Of a stretch of DNA of 27,791 bases, positions 2,624-27,757 are shown in pieces. Both the position numbers and the translations under genes were made by a program. The stretch is from assembly GCA_027604685.1 (NCBI GenBank), contig JADHYX010000283.1, positions 1-27,791 of the forward strand, in the 5' to 3' direction. The notes below the pieces were generated by a model. The model made no database searches. It saw nothing but the letters and a program-made list of their open reading frames with translations, and had not been told where the DNA came from. Position 1 is the stretch's first letter. Each line of letters begins with the position of its first letter. This DNA comes from Lobulomyces angularis (taxonomy: Eukaryota > Chytridiomycota > Chytridiomycetes > Lobulomycetales > Lobulomycetaceae).

Positions 2624-3805
2624 TTATTTTAATTGAAGAAATGTTTCAGTAAATTTCACTTCTTCCCAACGCTTAATTGCCTCTTCTGAAGACTTTTCAT
2701 CATAAAATGAGACATTTTCCATATCATCACAAAAATCCTCTTTATCTGCGTACAGCTTAAGCGTTTTCTCCGAATCGTTTCTTTTAAATTCCGTGGGATC
2801 TGCATTACCTTTTAATCCTGATGCCTTATACATGAATTGCAAATTGTGGAATTTTAAAAAGTACTTATATGGTTTTTTAGTGTCATCGTCGCCAAAATTC
2901 ACTTCTTTTCCGTTTTTCTCTGAAAGTAGCTTGACACCAGGATTCTCTTCCATCACCTTATCCAACAGATCTTGGTTTTGACACCAAAACTCATATTTTC
3001 CATCTGAATAGAGAATAGTGAAATAGTGACTATCAAACAATCTATGCATAGAGGGTGATAATAAAATACCGTTGCAGACACTGTTTAAACGTTTTGTAGA
3101 GTCACTATCCATAAAAGGAGGAAATGAAATTTCAAATAATTTACAGTAATCATCAAAATGCTCTTTGTCTTTCAGTGCCACAATATGACAGGCTTCACAG
3201 TTTGCTGCTTCAACACTTTCGCTTATGATGCACACTTTATCACGAGCTATAACACTTTTCCTAAATTCTTCTTGCGTTTTTGAGCTACGGGAGGAACGTG
3301 AGCTCTGGGAAGATTGTTTACTTGGGTAAATGCAACCAGTTTTGCCTACACTTTCAAATGACCGCTTGGAGATACTACTACCAGATTCAAATGCTAATGC
3401 TTTTATTTCCTCTATCCTTTTATACTCAACAGGTTCCTTTAGAAGTAAATTTCTGGTATCGTAAAGTAAATTTATGCTATCACAAAGTTTCCCACGCTGT
3501 TTATCAAGTTCGCTAAGCCGTTCAGCAAGTTCCCTACGTTCTTTATCAAGGTACAGGAAAGTTTCGTCCTTTTCGGCTAACAATTCCAGTATAGTTTTAT
3601 TTAACTTTGTAGTATATTCGGTTATAAATATATTTATTTGAGTTTTTTCTAATTGAACTTGAGTTTTTTCTAATTTATTTTCTTCAATACTAAGTTCAAT
3701 TTTCTTAATATCTTCTTTAACTTCATCAAGTTGTTGTTGAGTTTGTTCTACGCTGAGTTTTTGTTGATTTTGTTCCATGTTGAGTTTTTGTAGAGTTTGT
3801 TCCAT
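2624..3805 (-). CDS. HNH endonuclease-domain protein with N-terminal coiled coil
   Basis: An uninterrupted frame of 393 codons runs from the first in-frame ATG (3803-3805). It stays open upstream to about 3904 without another ATG, so a short 5' exon is possible (the stretch ending AAAG before 3903 could be an acceptor). Residues 1-150 are Gln/Glu/Lys/Leu-rich and predicted coiled coil, starting with nine-residue repeats. A Ser/Arg patch follows. Residues about 180-270 form an HNH_2-type domain of the fungal sort: FRKSVIARDKVC, then CEACHIVA with the first His (207), then CNGILLS with Asn (245) and MHRLFDSHYF with the second His (254). All three signature residues are present, so nuclease activity is plausible. 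HNH domains of this type also occur as C-terminal domains of Crinkler-class proteins, and a Crinkler locus lies 1.3 kb upstream; this protein has no ubiquitin-like header. Its substrate and role are unknown. Confidence 0.82.
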   Translation of the reverse strand: MEQTLQKLNMEQNQQKLSVEQTQQQLDEVKEDIKKIELSIEENKLEKTQVQLEKTQINIFITEYTTKLNKTILELLAEKDETFLYLDKERRELAERLSELDKQRGKLCDSINLLYDTRNLLLKEPVEYKRIEEIKALAFESGSSISKRSFESVGKTGCIYPSKQSSQSSRSSRSSKTQEEFRKSVIARDKVCIISESVEAANCEACHIVALKDKEHFDDYCKLFEISFPPFMDSDSTKRLNSVCNGILLSPSMHRLFDSHYFTILYSDGKYEFWCQNQDLLDKVMEENPGVKLLSEKNGKEVNFGDDDTKKPYKYFLKFHNLQFMYKASGLKGNADPTEFKRNDSEKTLKLYADKEDFCDDMENVSFYDEKSSEEAIKRWEEVKFTETFLQLK

Positions 3806-3859
3806 GTTGAGTTTTTGTAGAGTTTGTTCTATGTTGAGTTGTAGTTGAGTTTGTTTGTA
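3752..3859 (-). repeat. 27-bp coding minisatellite, four units
   Basis: Four tandem 27-bp units start at about 3752, 3779, 3806 and 3833. On the minus strand they encode the nonapeptides NIEQTLQKL, NMEQTLQKL, NMEQNQQKL and SVEQTQQQL at the N-terminal end of the HNH protein. The middle units are nearly identical in DNA, suggesting recent slippage. The first in-frame ATG lies inside this array, so copy-number change would alter both the coiled-coil length and the number of candidate starts. Confidence 0.85.
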
Positions 3860-4150
3860 TGTTGATGATAAAAATTTGAATTGGTTTTTACGCCACAAAG
3901 CGCTTTAAACTACAATTCACTTTAAAAATAGGAAAAAATATCACATTAAATAACTTAATTGGTAAATAAAAAATCTTAACTAAAAACAATTGAACATCAA
4001 TTTTTTTTTTTATTACAAAATTTCAATTTTCTAAATGTTTCTCTTTTTGAAGTAGTTGAAAACCACATAATATCTAAGCATTTCATTGCTTGCAACTATC
4101 AAATTCCATATCATATATGTTAAGATGTACATCACTTACATGCAATTATA

Positions 4151-5089: not shown

Positions 5090-7619
5090 TCAATCATCAA
5101 TCTGTGCTAAAAGATTTAGGTGACGCTCACCAAAAATACCATTCACATTTGTTTTATCAATAACTCTTTTGTAACATTTTAATCCACCAATTTCAACAAT
5201 TCCAGCTACTTCATTCTGAAATGTTTTTGGGTAGCAAATTACTAATCCAATACATCTTCCATAAAATTCCAAACTTTTCATACAATCAGCGAATTCCTGT
5301 TGATATTTTTCCAATATTTTCCCATTTTTGTCAGTATAAAACAAATTTGGTTGTATTGTCGATAAAGCAGCTTTTCTATTTACATCCCTGCTGAGTTTTA
5401 ACTGAACGAAAACAGGAACCAATTTATCATCGCCATTGCAAATAAAAAATACTAAATCAGGACCAGCACTTTCTACTGGATGGAAAAACAATGCATCATT
5501 CTTGGATGGATCTGACAAGAACTGTGATAATGTGATTATTTTATTGCTTTTACAATTGATAAATAATGGTACTGGATAACATTCCTGCCGAAAAATTTTT
5601 GAATTTTCACAATTCATAAAATCGGAACAATTGTTTGTTAACTCCTTTAAAATATTTCCTTTTTCTGCAATTTCCAGAAATCTATGGGGGAAATATTCCT
5701 TTTAAAAATTAAAATAAAATTTTCATCCTTTATTCAATAAATACATACCTCCCATAATAACCGCGAGATTGTGGATTAAAACCTCAGCTATCCGTATTTG
5801 CGCCATTTCATTTAAAAAAATTTTATTTTCTTTAAAAAAGTAATTATAAGCACTGTGTAAGACAAACAACTCTTTAACGGTAACAATAACTCATTACTTT
5901 GCTCCTCCACTTTTCTCAATATTCCAAAGGCACGCTCAAAAAGTCTAGCATCCTTTGATACTGACATTGTAAATGGGTGATCAAAACAAACCTTAAAAAA
6001 TACACATTTCTTCAGAAGAGGTAGCAATGTATTATTCTTTAATCTCTCCCTTTCAAAAGTCTATAAACTGAGCCATACAGTTATCTCATTTACAAACCCT
6101 TTAAAATTTTCATTAACATCAAAGTTTTTCTCTTTTGTGCGTTTAACTAAGCATAACTCACTAAACAGTGCCAGAGGTCTTACACGACCAATAAAGTATC
6201 ATGCGTGCTCTGGTAACAATTTTTAAATTTTTCACCAAGGTACTGCGAAAGAAAGTCCTGAATTTCATCAATATTTTCCAAACAATTGTCGGCAATGCAG
6301 ATTGCAGGTAGCAGTTTTGCAGTTGAACTTTTTATAAAGTCGGACACTATAGCATTATTTCCAGAAATATCAGTTATTGACAATCCTGTTCAGTAGGAAT
6401 AATTAAAACTATGTCCGTATCAATTGCAAGTATGGCGTTTTTTATAGCATTTAATAAAGAACACCTTTTTAGTGCATCGGAATTTGAAGGAAACCTATGA
6501 AATTCCGTATCAATGAGGGCTTGTGCTTCGTCCTACAACACAAAATTTACTATAAAAAGAAAAAATAAACTTTTTATGATACCAAAAAAATTGGAATATT
6601 TCCACTAACTTTCTTAAAGTACTCAATTAAACCATTTAACGTAGCTTCCAAATCTTGGAATTTAAAATGCCTAAAAATCTGTATAATGGTTTCAAAATAT
6701 TCATCTGTATTTGAATAACGTTTAGGGAATAGCTGAATAAAAAGCCACGTTTCTTTTGTTATTTTATCACTTTCATAAATTTTTTTAAACACATACAAAC
6801 AGGCGGCCACTAAGCATTTAACCAAATGAGCAAGATATTTCTGGTTTTCATATACATCTCTATTATTAAATTGCTGGATTCGTTCTATAATGTAATTAAG
6901 ATCCCTTGAGCCTGGAAGTTGTGTTCCTGAGTTCTTGTAAGTCAAAAAAATTCCATAGTGTTGGTATAAGTACTCGAAGATGGATCTTGTCTTTCCACAT
7001 CCACTTGATCCTAATATAAACGTAACTCTATTTTTAAGACTGCAATGCAAGAAGATAAAGACCCAAGCATTTCGATTGTACAGTACCCAAATCATCTATC
7101 AGCAAATGCGGTAAATTTTCTGGGTGTTTTTTAATGCCATCGACTGTAAACAAAATTTGTTGACATCAACTTCAATGAATTTAAATTTTTCTTCCAAGTT
7201 CTCTAAAACTCTTGGTTTTTCCCAAATTTCAAATGACCAGTTCTTCAAAAGCGGTGCAGGTTTGTCTACATTTGTAAATTTTTATATAAAAAATTTGCAA
7301 GTAATATGAATAGTTAAATTTTGAAACACACTTTGGTGTTTTACCTGGAACAACAACTACCAAATCCTCAGTGTTGTCTAAGTTGAAGACAGGAGTTCTT
7401 TCATTAACTGGCTCCTCTGATAATTTATCTACACTTTCATATATTTCTAGCTGACCTGCATCAACCTATGAAAAGAATATTTGAGTATTCTTCTTTAATT
7501 AATCTTCTTAAATCATCAATGTTAGTATCTTGCTGAACTAAAACGCTCGACGGTGAAATTTTTTTGTAAGGATTTCCCTCTGAATCGACAAGTTGAAACC
7601 AAATCCTAGATTTAGACAT
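5090..7619 (-). pseudogene. Crinkler-type gene (ubiquitin-like header, P-loop NTPase, PD-(D/E)XK nuclease), broken
   Basis: The start at 7617-7619 opens a ubiquitin-like Crinkler header (WFQLVDSEG, then DDLRRLIKEEYS). A linker exon follows after an apparent intron at 7266-7344. The NTPase part has Walker A GSSGCGKT (about 6988-7011) and a Walker B that reads IPIFLDEAQ only after removal of a 50-nt intron (6533-6582). The C-terminal exon (5681 to the stop at 5090-5092) is intact. It carries a nuclease-like core, GPDLVFF followed by VFVQLKLS, in which Gln takes the place of the usual Glu (D...QxK), as in Crinkler nucleases. Breaks: frame changes near 7466, 7140, 7046, 6383, 6200 and 5860, a TAG at 6061-6063 within otherwise continuous coding sequence, and a splice-phase mismatch between 5749 and 5681. 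Neighbouring genes join cleanly, so sequencing error is an unlikely sole cause. In known Crinklers the header accompanies delivery and the C-terminal nuclease acts in host nuclei. Here a dead or dying copy is inferred. Confidence 0.72.
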
Positions 7620-7685
7620 TGAAAAGTTTATGTGAAAATTTAATAAAGTTTTTTGATATGACTGAACCAGTGTGCAAAAGGCCAC

Positions 7686-8426
7686 CGTGGCGACGATCCG
7701 GTTGGCTGTATATACAGGATAAATGTGCCTTGCAGTAAAGTTACAAAAGTATCAAGCAATTAAAAGAATGCAAAAAAGAATGAAGAGAAGACATAATGCA
7801 AAATTAAAGCACTAAGAGCAATTCAATAAGGTTAATATAGCTAGATTTGGAAACGACTTTGTAAAGATGGCAGATTTAATTTTTATTAATTGAGTCGATA
7901 CGAAAATAAAAATAAGGACTGGAGTGATTAATTTTTGAATTTATAAAATAATGCCAAGCCTGAAACTCCACAGGACAAAAAGATAAGAAAATTGCAACTG
8001 GAAAGAGTTTTTTAGCAGTTTAAATAGATATTTTAGTTTATAATTTTTATTTAAAAATTGTTTTATATTTTGTTAAAATGGTAACCAAAAAGATCTACAT
8101 TTTCCTTCATTATAAGAGTTCATTTCATCATATGTTGATTTATGATTAATATATATACTATTTTTTTTTTTTTAGTATAATTTAAATTTGGAACTTTTTT
8201 TACAAGGATTTAAAATTTATGTCAAATTTTAATATAATGTTTTAAATGCTCGAAATATTAAATAAAAAAAATAGTGTGCTGTAAAATTAAAAAACTTAAT
8301 TTAGATATTGTATCAAAAGATTGATATTCTAGGAAATTATCATTATCATTAAAGCAATTTAAAAAAAAAAAAAAAATCAAAAAAGAATTATAAATAAATA
8401 GCAATAGATATCCATTTTTAAATAAT
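7686..8426. other. Intergenic, no gene seen
   Basis: This lies between the Crinkler start and the 3' end of the BAG gene. It includes a short, less AT-rich patch (about 7680-7720) and, on the plus strand, a small basic open stretch near 7740-7828 with no ATG-led gene structure. The rest is AT-rich with T runs and presumably holds the Crinkler 5' flank and the BAG 3' UTR. Confidence 0.45.
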
Positions 8427-11919: not shown

Positions 11920-14900
11920 TTATTCGGTGGATAATTCTTTTGGTAAAATCAAGTTAATATTACTTTGAACAACATCTTCAAAGTAACAAATAAAAATTAA
12001 GAGGTTTTTAATAATAAGATAAATATAAATATAATTTTCATAAGAAAATATAATTGTTTTTTAAATTTTTATTCTTTTTAAATACCTCTTCTAAACTGTA
12101 CAATCTGTTGAGTAAATCGATCCCTATTTTTACTTAATAAATTAAATTCTATTCCATCCATTAAATTTTTTAAAAGCTAGCAAAAATTTTAAAAAAAAAA
12201 AAAAATTAAAAAAAACTAACAAACATTCAAAATACTTAAAAAAAAAATGATAATATATTTTTTCTTACATCCTTGCTTACTAAAACCAAAGGAAAGAATG
12301 CTCTGCTCATTGTCCACTGACTAGGATGATCCATAAAAAACAATAATTCCATTAACTTGACTAAAATTTCATTTACAAGGTTTATGTTGTTCTCAACTTG
12401 ATCTACAAGGTAATGCTGTTTTTTTAATAGTCTTTGCTTTACTATAAAACTAAATATTGATTCAATAGACATTGCTATTTGAGTTGCTATGACCTGATCG
12501 GATGAAGTAAGGCACTCTCCTGAACTTTTCAGCATATAAGAAAAAACCTGTTCATCTATGTTAGGTAAAGCTTGCATTTGCTCTGACGAAAAAACTTGGA
12601 ACAACAGAAATACGGACTATAGAAATAATTTTTTTTTTAATAACTTTTAAAAATGCAGTAACACTTACATTTGCCAATTTTGGTAAGGTCTAAATTTTAT
12701 AATATTTAAAAAAAAAAAAAAAAGAAAAATTTAAAGCTTAGAAATTCTTTATTAAAGAGTAATCTTACTTTTAAGTCACTCAACGGGATTGATATTAACA
12801 ATCTAAAATACATATTGATAACATTATCATACGCAGGATCTTGATATAAACTGAATACTCCAAAATTAACATACTTGCCAACTAGAGACCATCGTAACAT
12901 ATTACTAGAAAAATTTAACACATTTTTATTTTTTTTAAAATTCTTCTTAAAATTTACAAACAAATGCAGAGTCCTTTATATTTTTCTTCCCATATTGTTG
13001 AAGGATTAAAGTTTCTGGATTGTAAAATTGATCCTATAAGTGTACATATATAAATTTTGTACCAATTTTTTTTTTTTTTATTAAATTAAAATGTGACTTA
13101 CCAAAATCACAAATAATTTTGCTTATTTCCCTAAACAGGAGAATTCTTTTGATAAAAAGATATAAAAAATAAAATTTAAAATAAAATTTATTTTTATTAA
13201 TTGCTCACCCTCCTGGACTGGAAACCTCAAATACTATCCTTTGACTTCTGTTTTGAACAAACTCACTGAAAAATTTTAGAATTGCAATGGAAGTTGAATT
13301 GGTTTCGTTGGCTTGAATACCCTTTAGTAAAACATTGGTAAAAGGTAAAAACCAATTAAAAAACATCATATAATTTGATTTTGATTGAAAAGACGATGAA
13401 AATCCACTAAAAAATAAAAAATTTGTTTAAAATTAGCTGTACAATGATACAACTATTTACCGTAAGTCTCTAAATATCCCTTCAATTACATTTTGGGCTT
13501 TTTCAGATCGAAAAGTTTCCAAGTCGTTTATATTTAAAAGCTCATTTAAAACAACTGTCCAGGGTTCGACAAATGCCATAAACTCTAATTCCAAATTGTC
13601 GTCGTTACTTAGTAAAAGTCTACCTAAAGCAGCATAGTACTAAATAACATTGAAGTTCAATTAAAAAATAAAAAAATAAATAAGTTGCTTACCTGAAACC
13701 TAGATTTTTTATTTACTGGTTCATCTAAAAAGGGAAAATAACTTGAAGTATGGTTTACCAGCATAATTTTTGCAGTTTCTGTTTTTCTTAAAAGCTTTAC
13801 TGATGAGTATCTAATGTTTTTTAATAAAATTACTGTATTTACAACTATTTTTATATTTTGCAAGTAATTTCATACCCACTGGATATATCTGACAGTAAAC
13901 TTAAACTTCTTGAAACAATATGCTTATTAGTTGCCCAAAACTTTAAGTTGGATGCTCTTTATAATCAAAAAAAATGTTTAACAAATCATTCATTAAATTA
14001 TACAATTTTTGAACTAAGACGTTTAAAATCATAGGGAGTCCTTTTAATTGAAATGTATCTCCTAATATATCATACACCTTTGTTGATCGCAAACTTTGAT
14101 CTCCAATGTAGCTTTTTCTGAACATTTGAAAAAAATAGATAAGGGCCAAATCTAACTTTGCATCTTTACAAGCATCTCCGTGCTTTCCATAAATTCATGT
14201 TAAAAAAATAAAAATACTACATTAAAATCTAATTATCACCTGTGCCACTAAGTTTTCGTTGACGTTCATTAGTTGCAAGACACTACATACAATCTCTAAG
14301 ATATTTAGTTCAAAAAAAAATAAAATTTTGATAAAAATAATTAAAAAATTTTTAAATACCTCCATCTAAATTGTCATTATCATCACTATTAGAAGCAGGA
14401 GGTCTAGCACTAACAAAAGCCCCGATAATATAAACTAAAACAGTAAATTTTGCGCCAACAGTTTGATTCCAAATTATTAAATTTAATTGTGATGCTAAAT
14501 TGTTGAATATAGTTTTAACAAAACCGCACGTTTCTTGGTATTTAGCTCTAGATACCGAAGCTAATAGCTCCATTGTACTAATTAAATCTGATTCCTCCTC
14601 TAAAAATTCATCTATATCCAAAAAAAAAAAAAAATGTCGCTTTTAAAAAATATAAAAAGCTTAAATATCTCACCAAAATCTTCTTCAGAAGTGTCCACTA
14701 ACTCAATTCTTGATTTAATAAAAGCAATAGAAAGCTACAATGGTAATGATTAAAATTTTTTAGATATACAGATTTTTCGTATTTTGTAATTTTTACTTGT
14801 CCTGCTAAAGTTTCCAATCTATCATGGCTTGCTGGTCTCGCTTTGCCTTTACTATCACTTACTGAAAAAACCATTTTGGACCAAAAGTGTATTAAATGGC

Positions 14901-16507
14901 TGACACTGGGCAAATGCCAAAATGCAGGTTGAAAACATTTGGTACTAAAATTATAAATAAGTTCAATCCATTCGTTGTATTCTCTTTTTTCTATAAGTTC
15001 GCTAAATTGATGAACTGTTCTTATTCTTAATAAAAATTTGCAAAATTCATAAGTATTTTCTTGTTCGTCAAAGCCTTTTTCATTTTTTAAAATAGCTGAT
15101 GTGAATTGCAACATTGCCGCTAAAAATTTTGACCGTTCATCTTCATTATTAAATATGGATCGACGAGTAGATACTAATATGGCTAATGCTTCCATGAATA
15201 ATGCAGCATCGGCTGCTTGTGCTTGGTTATAGCCATCAAAAAATAGCTTAATGGTAGAAACATCACATACAATGGGTTTCCAACTTGAAGGGATCTAAAA
15301 AAAAAATTAATCGGTAATTTTTTTTGAAATATTAATTGAACAAAAAAAAAAATTAAAAAAAAATACCTGTACAGTTCCGAAATCTTCAGAAGTTTCGTCA
15401 GGGGAAGTTCCAATAAAATCAAAACTCAAACAATTTTTAATTACATTCATTACTGCCACATTCAATTTTCTACGCATATCAGCTACGATAAAATTAGTAA
15501 AATATTTAATAATTTTCGATAAAAAAATGAAATAAATAATTTAATTTGTAGATTTTTACATAAAGAGCATTGAATTCCATTATTTAGTAGTGTGTTTAAA
15601 AATGAAATTGAAGTTTCCAGTATAGTTAGCAGCTGGTTATCTCGAAAGTTTACCGCTAATTAAAAAAAAAAAAATAAGTAAAAATTTTAGTCTCATGTAT
15701 TACCTATTTTTCTATGTTTTGATATATTAGAGTATGACATTCTTTGTATATTCATTTCTGTAACCAAAGAGGAGAGTATGTTAAGCCCAATCAATTTATG
15801 ACCTTCGTGTGACTATTCCAAAAAAATTATTAAAAATAAAACGTTAAAAAAAAATGAATAAATAATATAAAAAAAAAACCTGCAAGAAATTGTTAACATC
15901 TTTTAAAACTTGCCGACATTGAGTTTGATATTCTTCATTATTATCAATCCACGAGAGTTTTGTAAAAAGACAAAAAAATTGAATTAGATTTGAAATTACT
16001 GAAAATTCTAACTGGTCTGATTTGGTAAAAAGAAAATTTAAAATAAATAATCCTATATTATTTTTTTTATAAAAAAAATAAAAAAAAAATTAGTTCTTTA
16101 AAAAAAAAAAATCTTTTAATTTCATTATACTTAGTTCTATTTTTACGTCATAAGAAAAAGTATTCCAGTGGGAGGAAAACAAGTTTTTTAAACTTAGTAA
16201 TGCAAACATTTGAGTATAAGGAGAAGTTCCGACCTCTAACAACAGTTTACATTTTAATGCAGTATCAGTTGGTCTCAAATTTGTGGTAGGGGAAGAGTTG
16301 TTTACTGTTGGTAAACTTTGCTCTGAAAAAGTAGGAAAATGCTTTGCTAACAAAATTTCTGCTTGTTTTCTTTCTGTGGCATTGCCCTGTGGGTTATAAA
16401 GTCTGAAACAGGCTAAAATTTTAGAGTTAAATTCTTTGCTAGCATTATAATATAATTTATTAAGTACCTTGTTCAATCTGAGGCAGTTGTCCTTCTAAAA
16501 TATTCAT
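11920..16507 (-). CDS. XPO7: Exportin-7 / RanBP16 family karyopherin
   Basis: Twenty-two exons join in phase from ATG 16505-16507 to TAA 11920-11922, giving 1069 residues (human XPO7 is about 1087). Exons: 16468-16507, 16131-16412, 15880-16052, 15704-15812, 15560-15655, 15367-15482, 14797-15294, 14674-14734, 14360-14611, 14240-14295, 14004-14182, 13876-13956, 13693-13810, 13461-13639, 13209-13406, 13102-13145, 12958-13033, 12769-12904, 12669-12689, 12269-12616, 12086-12176, 11920-11975. Family signatures run the full length: [13 protein letters not shown] near the N-terminus, [105 protein letters not shown] at the C-terminus. Exportin-7 is a HEAT-repeat, Ran-GTP-dependent nuclear transport receptor. 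Odd points are one 21-nt exon (12669-12689) and about 20 residues missing, relative to the animal protein, between exons 20 and 21. Confidence 0.96.
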
Positions 16508-21832: not shown

Positions 21833-22939
21833 ATGCCTGCTGTTTCTCCTTACATTGAAATTCCTACTATAGATATTTCTGGTCTCTACTTTCAACAGTC
21901 TGATCCAAACTACAAACTTGCTTCTAAGCGTTTATTCAACGCAGTTAAAGAATTCGGTTTTGCCAATATCATCAATCACAACCTCCTTCACTCTAATCAA
22001 GAAAAATTAAACTCGGAATCTGTGAAATTCTTTCAAGACAAAGATGCTTCTGTAAGAAATTCTGTTAGAAGAAATGAATTCACTTCAAGAGGTAAACTTC
22101 ATTGATGATATTTTTTTTTATTTCGGTACAATTTAAAAAGGTTTTGCTGATAATGAGTTAACCAAGCAAAAGTTAGATAACAAAATGGTATTTGATTTTG
22201 CCAATCCGTTAACGGAAACTCCAAAAAGTTTGGATTTACAAAACTACTCTGAAGGAATTAATCAATGGCCAAAAGATAGAGAAGAATTTAAAAACAGCTG
22301 TTTGACACAATTTTTTGACTTAGATAAACTTGCTTTAATCATATTTAAAGCTTTAATATTCGAATTGAATTTGGATTTTGATACTGTTTATAAAAGTTTG
22401 GATTTGGACTTTCGGGAAGCCAAAATGAGATTAAATTACTACCCAATTGAAAAAGATGTATCGTTTGGTGTTTATGATCATGTAATTTTAAATTTTAACT
22501 TTTTTTAATTAAATTTTTAACAAAAAAAAATAAATTCATTTAGGCTGATCCTGGTTTAATAACTTTGTTATGGCAACAAAAAAGTGGTCTAGAAGCATTT
22601 CATGTAAAAACACAACAATGGTTAAAAGTGAATCCAATTGAAGGTGCATTTGTTTTAAATATTGGTGATATGTTTCAAGTACTTTCAAATAATGTTCTAA
22701 AAGCTGCCATTCATAGAGTAAAGATGGATGGTGATTCTACAGTTACTGCTGAAAATAACTATCGATTGTCTAGTCCTTTTTTTTTCAATCCTGGGTTTAA
22801 ATCTACAGTGAAACCATTCACAAAGTCTGAGAAACCTGTATACAAAGCTCTAAATTGGGCGGAGTTTAGATTAAAGAGAACGCTTGGAAACTATGCAGAT
22901 CATGGTTTGGAGGTTCAAATCGACCAATATCTCATTTAG
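21833..22939 (+). CDS. 2-oxoglutarate/Fe(II)-dependent dioxygenase, isopenicillin-N-synthase-like
   Basis: Three exons (21833-22091, 22141-22481, 22544-22939) join in phase to 331 residues, the usual length for this superfamily. The N-terminal domain opens with IPTIDISGL and contains EFGFANIINH, the classic DIOX_N pattern. The catalytic jelly-roll has the iron ligands His200 and Asp202 (YDH then ADPG, split by the second intron), His257 (AAIHRV), and the 2-oxoglutarate-binding R274-x-S276 (YRLS). The motif set is complete, so an active oxygenase is expected. It would oxidise a small molecule with 2-oxoglutarate and O2; the substrate cannot be told from sequence. It is the only plus-strand gene found and ends 190 bases from the stop of the converging RING/TPR gene. 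The other oxidative gene nearby is the P450, on the opposite strand. Confidence 0.93.
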
Positions 22940-23128: not shown

Positions 23129-26100
23129 TTATAACCAGTATCTGGCTTTAAAAAATGCAACCATTTCTGGGTCAGTTTTTGCTTTTTTACTAACACCAGC
23201 ATATACTTCCATCAATGTTTCATACTCATTGTTTTCATCTAAAATTTTAACGTAACTTTCCAAACTTTTAATGCCTGGTAATTTGTTATATTTTTTATTA
23301 TAAAAAAAAGTATATGAATAGTTAGAAATTTTTTAAAATTATCGTTTTGCTTTTATACCTCCTCTATGTTTTCCTTCCAAAATTAAACAGTTAATTAACA
23401 AATTTTCTCTAAACTTTTTTTCTTTTAAAAAAAGTCTATTAATTTCACTAAATATAAATATTTCATCTTCAGTTGGCTTTGTATTTAAGGAATCATAATC
23501 ATTTAAAATAAATCCAGAATAAAATTTTTGTGCTTCACTGGATGAAACAAACTGATTCAGAATTGATCCCAGTTCCACATAAATTTCAATATTATTTGGT
23601 GAATAGTTTAAGGCTTCCTTATAAAATTTAATGCTGAGGTTTAAAAACTCTTCTTTAGTTGAAGATTGGTCCACAAAATTTTTAAGCTTTAGGTGATCAA
23701 ACAAGTTAAATTTTATGAAATTGACTTTTGCTAAACTAACTCTCGTCAATACCCAGTCATATCCATCAAACTTTGAAATCTTTTTATTATTTAATTCGGG
23801 CCTATTTCCAGGTGTTACTGAAGGTCTCACTTGAGAAACTTGCGTCAATCGCATTGTTGAATTAGATTTTGAAACAGTCAAGTTATTCTTTGATGCAGTT
23901 AAATTATTTTTTGACGCAGTCAAGTTTTTGGAAGTGGGCACTGCTAGGTTAAATTTTGACGTAGTTTTGGAAGTTGAAGTTACTGCCAAGTTATTTTTTG
24001 ATGCAGGTGCAATTTTTGAATTTTTTGCTGATAAATTACTTTTAGAACCAGTTTTAGTTGTCTCAACTTTTTTTGGAGTATTTAATAATATAGCAAGATT
24101 TCCTACTTTTTCTTGATGATGCTGAGAAGGTTTTGTTATTGATTTGCTCTTGGAGAAAGCTAAATTTTCTTTACTCATTTTACTAATTGGCAAAATTTTT
24201 TTTGCATTTGTTTCCACTTTAGCAGGAAGTGTTGGATTTCCTACCACTCCGTCGGTTTTTTTAACTTCGGATTTAATGGTTGTCGTTGCAAGTGACTTTT
24301 TTATAACCGGTTTTTTGACAACAGTTTTGTCATTTTTTTCTGTCCGCGCTTCTTCCAATATTGTATCGTCCATTTTATAAAAGTTTAAGTGGAAATCTCC
24401 CCACCATAACTGTGATGTAAATTTCTGTGAAGGTTCAGCTATTATATTATCAGGGTTTTCTTTTTCCGCTACAAAAAATAGAATTAAAAATAAAATATAA
24501 AAAAAAAATATAAATATATATATTTTATGAGTAAAACTTTTATAAGATTGTTTTATTAATTTACTGTCAAGAGCACATAATAATGACTTCTCGGCATCAA
24601 GCAAGAAAGTATAAATTTCCTCAACTTTAAAAAACTTTAAATCAGCTTCCCCTAAATTTGAAATAAACTCAAATTTTTCTAACTGGAGAGTTCCAAGTGA
24701 GTTTACGTACTTGGGCTCTTTAGTATTTGTTAAATAGACTAAAATCTTAAATACATTTAGGTTGACGTTCAAAAAATTAAATTTATTCTTTAGATTATGA
24801 GTGTTTAGCTCCTCAAATTTGTTTAAAAATCTGTATAAAATTATAATTGACTGGAAAAGTATTTTAGTCTGAGCTTTTCTCTTCTTTGTTATTTCACTCG
24901 TCTTTAAACTAGTTTCGGGTATATTAGTGGTTGTCATATTTAGTTTTAATATTTCAGTTTGAGCCTCTAAAAAATGTAAGTTCATTTTAAAAAATTTTTG
25001 AGATTTTGGATTGATCTTTTTCATTTCTTCAGTTAATTCAAATAAAAAATCATAGACAATTTCAGTTGCTAGTTCAAGTTTTCCCAATTTTCCATAACAC
25101 TTGGAGAGGGACAACCAGGCCACTCTTAAAACATCATTGCTGAGCTGATACCAATCTTCCACCAAAAGTGGTTGCGAGTAATCAGATTTTTGCTGAAAAA
25201 GTTGTTCTTGGTTTATACAATATTTCTGAATGCAATCTGTTAAATAATAAACCGCCTCGTTTAATACGCTTTTTTCAAAATTGACTTGTTGTGATTTTTC
25301 TAGCGCTATTCCCTATGGAATGAAGAGATTATAGTAATATATTAATATTTTAAATTATTAAAAATTTTATTTTACCAATAACAATTTTCCAGCAAAAGAA
25401 TCAGTGTCTTTACCAACTGCTCTTCTCAAAAAGACAATTGCTTCATTGATCTTTCCTAGAAATAGTAAATTTCTCCCATAATGAATACTACAACATCATA
25501 AAAAAAAATTTACACATATATTAATGAAATGAACTGCGCTTTGTTAATTAAAAAATATATTTTTTTTTTTTTTTTACTTCGCATCGAGAGACTTTGGATT
25601 TACTTTACAAGCCATTAAAAACTTGTCTGATATGTTAAGAAAATTCTGCTCTTCATTTTGATCCAGTGAAGAGAAACTACTACCTATTTTGGCGCCTACC
25701 GTGTTCATAGTTTTTAATTTCCAGGATAGTAATCCTTGCACCTCAGCCGCTTTATCAGATTGTCCAGCAGCCAGCAACCTGTGATATTCCTCCTCCATTG
25801 CGCGTATTTTAAACTCGTCACTTTTATCCTTTGAAACGCCTTTAATTTATTTGCAATAAATTTTTTTATTTTTATTTTAATATTAACTAATAATAAAAAG
25901 AAATAAAACCTAATGAAAGAAGTAATCCTTCAATTTCATCAGCGCAAAAAGAATCCTTAGCAATCATATTTTCATCGACAACATCTTTTTTTTTTTGAAG
26001 ATTGTTTGGAATAGGAAAAAAATTATTGTATTCAATAATTTCCTCTAATATTAGTCCAATTTGCAATTGACAATGACTCTCCTCCTCTTTTTCATTCTCA

Positions 26101-27757
26101 GATTTGTCATTTAACTTAGAAAGAAGATTAACTAGTTTAATTTTAATCGTTTCTAATTGTGGAATAGCAGTTTCCAGTGCAATTTGCCCCGAAAATTTTT
26201 TGGAAAATTTAAGTGTTTCGTTTAAGTTTCGTCTATAACTGGCTATATGATTATTTAGAATTTTCAATTTTGAAACATTGAAGTCATCTCCAGAAAGAAC
26301 TTTTTTATCCATCAATGCTTGTTCCCATGATTTAAATAAATATTTTTCTTTAAGTACAGGGATTTCGATGGCATTTTGTACTATGCACATGGCTTTGTGG
26401 TACTCAGTTTCCACCAGTGGAATAATTAAATCACATTTGCATTTTTCAATACAACTCGTTTTATGTTTAAACCCATCTACAGACCTTTCCAATTCACTAC
26501 TCTTCGCCTCAAATTTTTTGCATTTGATGCATTGCCATTCAATAGACTCTGAAATTTCTAAATCTTTTAGCAAAACCGCGCCTTTTTCTGAAAAATCATG
26601 CTTTAAGATGATTGAAGGTGGTTTTACTTTAAGTTCCGCTAAATATTTTTCTACTTTGGGATTTGAAATTGCAGTAAATTTAATTTCAGTCGCCTCGTTA
26701 AATGCATCATTGTTTTTTGTAGAAAAACAAAAAGGGCAATTTATGCGCACAATCTGTGATCCAGCCTCCTTATCTATTTCTATTGCTTTTTCACCAAACA
26801 AGTCTAGACAAGTGTAACAAAAAATATGTTTGCATGAATTGATTTTTGTGCTAAAATAGGACCAAGGACGAAAAACCACCCCACTACATAAATTACATAA
26901 CAAATCTTCCGAAAATTTATTATCGTCCTCCACAAAATGTGGCCTTCTGACAGGTTTATCTAAATAAGATTATTATTTATGGTTACTAGAGAAATTTCAC
27001 GTATTTTTTTCTTTTTTTTTTATTTAAATTTTTAATTTACCACGCCGAATTGTAATATGATAATCTGATGAACCTTGCATATCAGCGGCCAAAACATGTA
27101 AAGTTACAGATGTATCACCTAATAGCAAATCAACCGAGAGTTCGTTCGGTGCCTCTGCCCCACTACTGTTATTTATTACTGTTACTTTTGCTTTTGGATT
27201 TATAGCAAATGACTTTATTGTTATATTTTTTATAAATCCAACATTTAGGGTGTAAAACTTTTCAGAGGGTTGAAAATCAGGCCTTAAAAAACCAGATTCA
27301 AATTTGATGTTGCTTAGTCCAGATTCACTTTCTATACAAATATTATTAAAAAATTGTATTAACAGACGTATATTTCAAAATTTTCAAACCAGCTGGTTTT
27401 TGTATTTTTATGATGTAAGTACTACTTGTTGTCTTATCTGGTGCATCTACTTTAATGGACACTTCATTTTGTCCATTTTTCAGTGATATATTTCCATTGC
27501 TGTTAGTTTTTTGTACTTGGGCATACCCATCAGTCTCAGTTGGAATTGCTTTTATTAATATTTCTAAATTATAAAGTTTTTTAGTTTTTTTTATTTAAAA
27601 AATTTTGATTTTATAGTTTTAAGAATTAACCTTCCACATCAGAAGCGACAGTACAGTAATACAAGTATATACATTTATCAAAAGGAGGTTTGCAAGTTAT
27701 AATTTCATTAGATGTTTTTGAAGTAATTGAAATTTTTTTTAATGTGGAATCATCCAT
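23129..27757 (-). CDS. Cadherin-like/RING/TRAF-type zinc finger/TPR protein, probable E3 ubiquitin ligase
   Basis: Nine exons (27631-27757, 27390-27563, 27041-27331, 25910-26959, 25578-25839, 25376-25487, 24565-25312, 23359-24468, 23129-23274) join in phase to 1339 residues. Residues about 1-99 and 101-197 are two cadherin-like beta-sandwich repeats: the second begins LSNIKFESGFLRPDFQPSEK and both end in a YxIxI strand. A C3HC4 RING spans 219-275 (CNLC, CKHIFCYTC, CPFC). TRAF-type zinc pairs follow: C341, C344, H363, C367 and C371, C373, H385, C389. Then come a helical stretch, TPR-like helices (about 550-900, for example IHYGRNLLFLGKINEAIVFL), a Lys/Ser/Thr-rich linker (about 950-1120), and a final TPR-like region (about 1140-1330, IKFYKEALNYSPNNIEIYVE). 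RINGs of this type recruit E2 enzymes; the beta-sandwiches and TPRs would bind targets. No signal peptide is seen. I know no named family with this order. Confidence 0.88.
23857..23936 (-). repeat. 21-bp coding repeat in the linker
   Basis: Near-tandem 21-bp units encode the heptads ASKNNLT, ASKNNLT and VSKSNST of the linker in the RING/TPR protein. Related SKSNL, SKNNLAV and SKFNLAV segments occur up to about 24060. The linker is basic and Ser/Thr-rich, probably disordered and a likely phosphorylation target. Confidence 0.7.
24469..24564 (-). other. Stop-free 96-nt intron within the RING/TPR gene
   Basis: The segment begins GTAAAT and ends TTTTGTAG on the minus strand and separates exons 7 and 8 (phase 1). 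It is a multiple of three and has no stop in the host frame. Its translation contains IYIFIFFFYILFLILFFV, unlike the surrounding hydrophilic sequence, which supports treating it as an intron. Confidence 0.75.

What the first reader, a model, noticed from the sequence alone, without database searches (positions are those of the whole stretch)
23129..27757. One gene joins cadherin-like sandwiches, a RING, TRAF-type zinc fingers and TPRs
Seen: eight introns with GT-AG borders link all exons in compatible phase from an ATG to a stop, so the RING part and the TPR part are one 1339-residue protein, not two genes. Known: RING plus TRAF-type zinc finger is typical of E3 ligases, and cadherin-like beta-sandwich domains are mostly known from bacterial and surface proteins. 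Inference: this is an uncommon intracellular ligase with its own adaptor modules, possibly specific to zoosporic fungi.
Basis: partly seen in the sequence, partly recalled or inferred. Interest (0 to 1): 0.75.

Follow-up and report, generated by a model that had tools for sequence, protein, structure and literature searches.

The report
Chytrid TRAF-like RING protein with TPRs
A chytrid fungus gene appears to encode one long protein that joins two bacterial-looking beta-sandwich domains, a RING and zinc fingers resembling those of animal TRAF ubiquitin ligases, and a TPR scaffold, and similar proteins recur in other chytrids although no description of them was found.

Summary
Nine minus-strand exons with eight GT-AG introns give 1339 residues. 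The genome is Clydaea vesicula or very near (4 of 1238 residues differ). Relatives occur in eight other chytrid genera (nine genera, six orders in all) and in two unnamed proteins. The RING/TPR border (intron 4) aligns ungapped in 13 of 13 other rows, so this is one gene; there is no transcript evidence.

Domains: two cadherin-like sandwiches (PF12733 above cut-off in 15 of 15 proteins); a RING with all eight ligands here and in 10 of 14 rows (four models lack part); TRAF-type fingers 2-3 intact in 14 of 14; TPR superhelix; basic linker; C-terminal TPR-like block. The RING-finger profile best matches TRAF6 (E 1.5e-7, whole length), closely followed by TRIM30's RING alone.

Corrections: window RING and TPR hits are below cut-off and zf-TRAF is not listed; finger 1, needed for TRAF6 activity (PMC5702613), is lost in Clydaea only.

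Best reading: a TRAF-like RING ligase or scaffold whose sandwiches and TPRs bind partners; activity untested. Not a TRAF: no MATH domain found.

The parts
23129..27757 (-). whole gene, 9 exons, 1339 aa
   Evidence: spliced translation without internal stop; relatives along the length
27390..27757 (-). exons 1-2: first cadherin-like beta sandwich (aa 1-100)
   Evidence: PF12733 best stretch aa 21-97; start MDDSTLK or near it shared with relatives
27041..27331 (-). exon 3: second cadherin-like beta sandwich (aa 101-197)
26727..26897 (-). RING finger, C3HC4, aa 219-275
   Evidence: eight ligands present here and in 10 of 14 rows; the other four models lack four to six of them; sub-threshold Pfam hits in window, above cut-off in P0011, P0012, P0027
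26532..26633 (-). degenerate place of TRAF-type zinc finger 1 (about aa 307-340)
   Evidence: CCHC ligands present in 12 of 14 rows, absent only in the two Clydaea rows; bounds by eye
26385..26531 (-). TRAF-type zinc fingers 2 and 3 (aa 341-389; C341 C344 H363 C367 / C371 C373 H385 C389)
   Evidence: ligands in 14 of 14 rows; RING-finger profile matches TRAF6 over nearly its whole length
24428..26330 (-). helical TPR superhelix (about aa 408-935, bounds carried over from the P0025 model by eye), including the conserved EEEYHRLL block
   Evidence: model of orthologue P0025; matches to LGN, OGT and designed TPR arrays; sub-threshold TPR Pfam hits in window, above cut-off in 13 of 15 proteins
23783..24355 (-). 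low-complexity basic linker (aa 960-1150) with SKNNL-like repeats
   Evidence: net charge +0.13 per residue; positive in 14 of 14 rows, +0.08 to +0.18, the rest of each protein slightly negative; mostly pLDDT under 50 in the P0025 model
23132..23752 (-). C-terminal TPR-like helical block (aa 1161-1339) ending FFKARYWL
   Evidence: TPR_11 stretch aa 1200-1224, protein score below cut-off; helices in model; 42 to 67 identities of 150 to 171 aligned in the ten non-Clydaea rows that cover it; the Powellomyces and Spizellomyces models end before it

Best explanation
One gene, with no second copy found, encodes a TRAF-like RING protein. Shown by sequence: the fused gene, the domain order (two cadherin-like sandwiches, RING, TRAF-type fingers, TPR superhelix, basic linker, C-terminal TPR-like block) and its conservation in Chytridiomycota. 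Inferred: the protein is intracellular; the RING binds a ubiquitin-loaded E2, helped in most relatives by zinc finger 1 as in TRAF6; the paired N-terminal sandwiches play the partner-binding part that the C-terminal sandwich plays in TRAFs; the TPR superhelix and the basic linker hold clients or a larger assembly in place for ubiquitination. In Clydaea, loss of finger 1 predicts weak ligase activity or a mainly scaffolding role.
For: Spliced gene and relatives across the junctions, best at introns 4 and 5. PF12733 above cut-off in 15 of 15 proteins. Eight RING ligands in 10 of 14 rows and finger 2/3 ligands in 14 of 14. Family RING-finger profile: best PDB match TRAF6 RING+ZnF 5vo0, E 1.5e-7, profile positions 23-182 of 186; TRAF5 at 1.6e-4. 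TPR superhelix in the orthologue model, mean pLDDT 77, matching LGN and OGT arrays. No second copy found in the genome. Tree groups follow chytrid orders, fitting vertical descent. In TRAF6, RING dimer plus ZF1 hold the E2~ubiquitin closed (PMC5702613, abstract and passages seen).
Confidence: 0.6

Rival explanations
1. A scaffold rather than an enzyme: the RING and fingers serve only dimerisation or protein binding, and the TPRs organise a complex, for example at the flagellar base of the zoospore.
For: No Arg/Lys after the last RING cysteine in 14 of 14 rows; finger 1 lost in Clydaea; four gene models lack part of the RING while fingers 2-3 stay. Window identity to relatives is highest in the EEEYHRLL block (21 to 35 of 60 in the 12 non-Clydaea rows). 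TPR fold matches include IFT-A, BBSome and axonemal proteins, but equally Ctr9, Ski3, OGT and APC/C.
Against: All eight RING ligands are kept in 10 of 14 rows, including the long Clydaea branch and P0027, hard to explain without a RING function. The flagellar idea has no specific evidence.
Confidence: 0.3
2. Two neighbouring genes (cadherin-like/RING and TPR) wrongly joined by gene prediction.
For: No transcript evidence; the relatives are predictions too. Intron 4 has the donor GTTTTA, one of three of eight that do not begin GTA, and exon 5 holds an in-frame ATG (the M of AMEEEYHRLL).
Against: Junction 4 is ungapped and conserved in 13 of 13 other rows, 10 of the 12 non-Clydaea ones from eight other named genera; that M is I or L in several rows.
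Confidence: 0.02
3. A true member of the TRAF family that lost its MATH domain.
For: RING plus TRAF-type fingers; best PDB match TRAF6.
Against: No MATH hit in the 15 proteins scanned; the sandwich domains are PF12733 and N-terminal; TPRs are not a TRAF feature (recall). TRIM RINGs match nearly as well over the RING.
Confidence: 0.08

Closest known systems
TRAF family (TRAF6, TRAF5; Dictyostelium TrafE)
   Same: RING followed by TRAF-type zinc fingers; beta-sandwich domain in the same chain; TRAF6 is the best PDB match of the family RING-finger profile.
   Different: Sandwiches are PF12733 and N-terminal instead of a C-terminal TRAF-C domain; long TPR superhelix; finger 1 lost in Clydaea.
TPR-bearing RING/U-box ligases (CHIP/STUB1, TTC3, LONRF, rapsyn; named from recall)
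   Same: TPR array joined to a RING-like domain in one chain (recall).
   Different: By recall these lack PF12733 and TRAF-type fingers; not tested here.
Cadherin-like beta-sandwich proteins of bacteria (PF12733)
   Different: Here the domains stand in front of a RING. That PF12733 proteins are mostly surface or secreted is recall; no signal-peptide predictor was run on the window protein.
Giant-virus RING-type proteins (Terrestrivirus, Harvfovirus)
   Same: Predicted structures annotated as RING-type match the model over long stretches.
   Different: TM-scores normalised to the model are 0.10-0.12, so only a loose likeness; a two-pattern scan of viral contigs found no sequence relative.

Membership tests
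TRAF family | RING of C3HC4 type | tested here: met
   eight ligands in window and in 10 of 14 rows; Pfam hit below cut-off in window
TRAF family | TRAF-type zinc fingers after the RING | tested here: inconclusive
   fingers 2-3 ligands 14 of 14, finger 1 12 of 14 and missing in window; family profile matches TRAF6; zf-TRAF not listed for window at E<=5
TRAF family | C-terminal TRAF-C/MATH sandwich | tested here: not met
   no MATH hit in window at E<=5 nor in 14 relatives at E<=5, 1 and 0.5; the C-terminus of P0025 is modelled as helices
TRAF family | TRAF-N coiled coil and trimerisation | not tested
   no coiled-coil or oligomer prediction was run
Cadherin-like beta sandwich (PF12733) | profile match above curated cut-off | tested here: met
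   51.7 bits against 24.2 in window; 15 of 15 proteins above cut-off, two stretches in 14 of 15
TPR proteins | TPR profile match above cut-off | tested here: inconclusive
   window and P0006 fail, 13 of 15 proteins pass at least one TPR cut-off
TPR proteins | helical hairpin superhelix | tested here: met
   model of orthologue P0025 and its matches to TPR arrays; not modelled for the window protein itself beyond exon 4
active RING E3 ligases | ubiquitin transfer with an E2 | not testable with these tools
   needs biochemistry; no Arg/Lys after the last RING Cys in 14 of 14 rows (meaning of that position recalled)
CHIP-type TPR ligases | U-box in place of a zinc-binding RING | tested here: not met
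   U-box family not listed at E<=5; eight zinc ligands present

The most novel reading that the evidence does not exclude
An old, so far undescribed class of TRAF-like ligase without MATH domains: paired cadherin-like sandwiches are its ligand-reading head and a TPR superhelix its client platform. It has been kept as one protein across chytrids, perhaps also beyond fungi (P0027), and in Clydaea is turning into a non-catalytic scaffold by losing finger 1.
Probability: 0.25. Interest if true: 0.65.

Novelty: new variant of a known kind. Interest (0 to 1): 0.5.

Why it matters
TRAF signalling is known mainly from animals and, for TRAF-like ligases, from Dictyostelium (recall; PMC10181826 passages). 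A chytrid family with a TRAF6-like RING-finger module, a different sandwich head and a TPR array would show that this kind of ligase can be built in more than one way. It also offers a natural test of finger 1, which 12 of 14 rows keep and the two Clydaea rows have lost. If it is chytrid-specific it is a marker of chytrid biology; if not, P0027 may point to an older origin.

Tried and rejected
Chance or mis-joined gene: rejected by conservation across the junctions. Support is uneven. Introns 4 and 5 are ungapped in 13 of 13 other rows. Intron 1 is covered in 12 rows (one only in part), intron 2 in 13 (one half-covered, one with a 5-residue gap), intron 3 in 13 (two half-covered). Intron 6 has small gaps in four rows and an insertion in one. 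Intron 7 has gapped flanks in 8 rows. Intron 8 shows a one-residue difference in 10 rows, and the models of Powellomyces and Spizellomyces end before it.

Own-genome searches for zf-TRAF (PF02176) and MATH (PF00917) found nothing, but the 14 controls were silent too, so they say nothing about absence. The second sandwich alone found nothing in the PDB by sequence. Scans of viral contigs and genome contigs with two peptide patterns each matched 44 and 157 stretches, none a relative. The viral fold search gave Ig-like and loose helical matches. The model of the window's exon 4 was too poor to use (pLDDT 56, pTM 0.29) and was not searched.

Papers: none held cadherin-like beta sandwich + RING + tetratricopeptide. 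By listing, 4 and 1 papers hold the domain names: bacteria, a phage, lung cancer. Chytrid/TRAF searches: 15 of 33 listed, 0, 1, and 15 of 154 listed, none on such a family by title. 5 papers name Clydaea vesicula. Most subscription papers are not held, so 'undescribed' means not found there.

Rows dropped: P0006 and P0009 are second gene models of Powellomyces and Polyrhizophydium and were left out of the 14-row counts. P0006 lacks the RING and the fingers; P0009 lacks the first part of the RING and fingers 2-3. Other hits were not counted as relatives: by their listed Pfam domains P0003-P0005, P0028-P0030 and P0032-P0034 carry PF12733 without RING or TPR, and P0013-P0021, P0031 and P0035-P0038 carry TPRs without PF12733 (some lists were cut in the output).

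Full report
What is there. The minus strand from 27757 to 23129 holds nine exons separated by eight introns of 58-96 nt, all GT...AG, giving 1339 residues and a TAA stop without internal stops. The window is contig C283 of a 20.8 Mb genome in 533 contigs. NCBI's partial protein HK099_007347 of Clydaea vesicula, order Lobulomycetales, differs at 4 of 1238 residues, so the window is that species or very near it. That protein begins at the first whole codon of exon 3 and agrees with the spliced product from there on; exons 1 and 2 are supported by relatives that start MDDSTLK or nearly so.

One gene, not two. Three protein searches found relatives in Borealophlyctis, Powellomyces, Spizellomyces, Polyrhizophydium, Dinochytrium, Polychytrium, Chytriomyces and Obelidium, of the orders Rhizophlyctidales, Spizellomycetales, Rhizophydiales, Chytridiales and Polychytriales; with Clydaea that is nine genera and six orders. 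Not every model is complete: the Powellomyces and Spizellomyces models end before the C-terminal block, and those of Borealophlyctis, Polyrhizophydium and Obelidium lack part of the RING. I compared 14 rows: two of Clydaea, ten from the eight other genera, and unnamed P0012 and P0027. The others are supported by fewer or gapped rows, intron 7 least. All of these are gene predictions, not transcripts.

Domains. PF12733 is far above cut-off in the window protein (51.7 against 24.2 bits, two stretches) and above it in 15 of 15 proteins scanned. RING profiles reach a cut-off in 3 of 15 (P0011, P0012, P0027) and not in the window, but the eight C3HC4 ligands are complete in the window and in 10 of 14 rows in all; P0002, P0010, P0024 and P0026 lack four to six of them. 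The zf-TRAF profile is not listed for the window protein and matches 2 of 8 RING-finger pieces weakly (best E 0.18). A profile of eight RING-finger pieces matches TRAF6 RING+ZnF (5vo0) best in the PDB, E 1.5e-7, along nearly its whole length, with a bias correction of 20 bits; the RINGs of TRIM30 (3.6e-7) and TRIM5 (3.4e-6) come next over the RING alone, TRAF5 has 1.6e-4, and the finger-only matches FLN29 (0.028) and SIAH1 (0.16) are not significant. With the full-length profile the TRAF6 chain scores E 1.3e-5. Finger 2 and 3 ligands are kept in 14 of 14 rows; finger 1 (C-x6-C...H-x3-C in Powellomyces) is kept in 12 of 14 and lost only in the two Clydaea rows. At least one TPR cut-off is met in 13 of 15 proteins, not in the window or P0006.

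Linker. Window residues 960-1150 carry +0.13 net charge per residue; all 14 rows are positive in the matching columns (+0.08 to +0.18) while the rest of each protein is slightly negative. The sequence is not conserved but the charge is; P0027 uses arginine (11) as well as lysine (9). This would suit an acidic partner (inference).

Descent. No second copy was found (only best candidates are scored), and the two sandwich exons are the only PF12733 matches reported in the genome, one over and one just under the cut-off. In a maximum-likelihood tree the Spizellomycetales, the Chytridiales, and Polyrhizophydium with P0012 group with strong support (98/99, 99/97, 100/99), as expected for vertical descent; Clydaea (2.98) and P0027 (3.24) are very long branches, and their places are not resolved. 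P0027 has every domain but no source name; it could be a non-fungal relative or a fast-evolving fungus.

How it most likely works. [quoted passage not shown] The chytrid family keeps a RING and three fingers in most members, so a TRAF6-like ligase is the simplest reading. The position after the last RING cysteine is never Arg/Lys (F, P, T, Y, N, G or V in 14 of 14 rows); by recall that position often stabilises E2~ubiquitin, so finger 1 may matter more. If so, Clydaea, without finger 1, should be a weak ligase or a scaffold. The sandwiches in front and the TPRs behind would choose partners. None of this function is shown.

What is known of the kind. TRAFs end in a TRAF-N coiled coil and a TRAF-C domain of seven to eight beta strands; Dictyostelium TrafE is a TRAF-like ligase recruited to damaged endolysosomes (PMC10181826: passages seen). 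No MATH (TRAF-C) hit was found in the 15 proteins scanned here, so this is not a TRAF by definition, though it may work like one. I found no paper describing the architecture (listings only).

Verdict. It is a real, conserved and apparently undescribed architecture of a known kind of protein.

Noticed in passing
window 21833-22939 (+): 2-oxoglutarate/Fe(II) dioxygenase gene in pieces: DIOX_N 34.7 bits and 2OG-FeII_Oxy 57.2 bits, both above cut-off; it converges on the studied gene, about 190 bases between the ends.
   Followed up: partly
window 2624-3904 (-): 426-residue frame with an HNH_2 endonuclease domain (41.5 bits, above cut-off) behind a glutamine-rich repeated start (LNMEQTLQK repeats).
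   Followed up: no
window about 5090-7751 (-): Frames with a P-loop-like GSSGCGKTR stretch and a header that looks like a Crinkler-type start (recalled; Pfam silent on the three frames tested).
   Followed up: no
window about 14352-16494 (-): Exportin-7-like gene: TPR_XPO7 48.9 bits and importin-beta N-terminal 23.1 bits, both above cut-off.
   Followed up: no
P0027 (no source name, contig 918 kb): Most divergent relative with the whole domain set, 1067 aa, with an arginine- and glycine-rich linker and a compact RING; organism unknown.
   Followed up: partly
viral fold library hits A0A3G4ZMX2, A0A3G5A4T3, A0A3G5A461: Giant-virus proteins annotated as RING-type match the model loosely over long stretches; RING plus helical repeats in giant viruses may deserve a look.
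   Followed up: no
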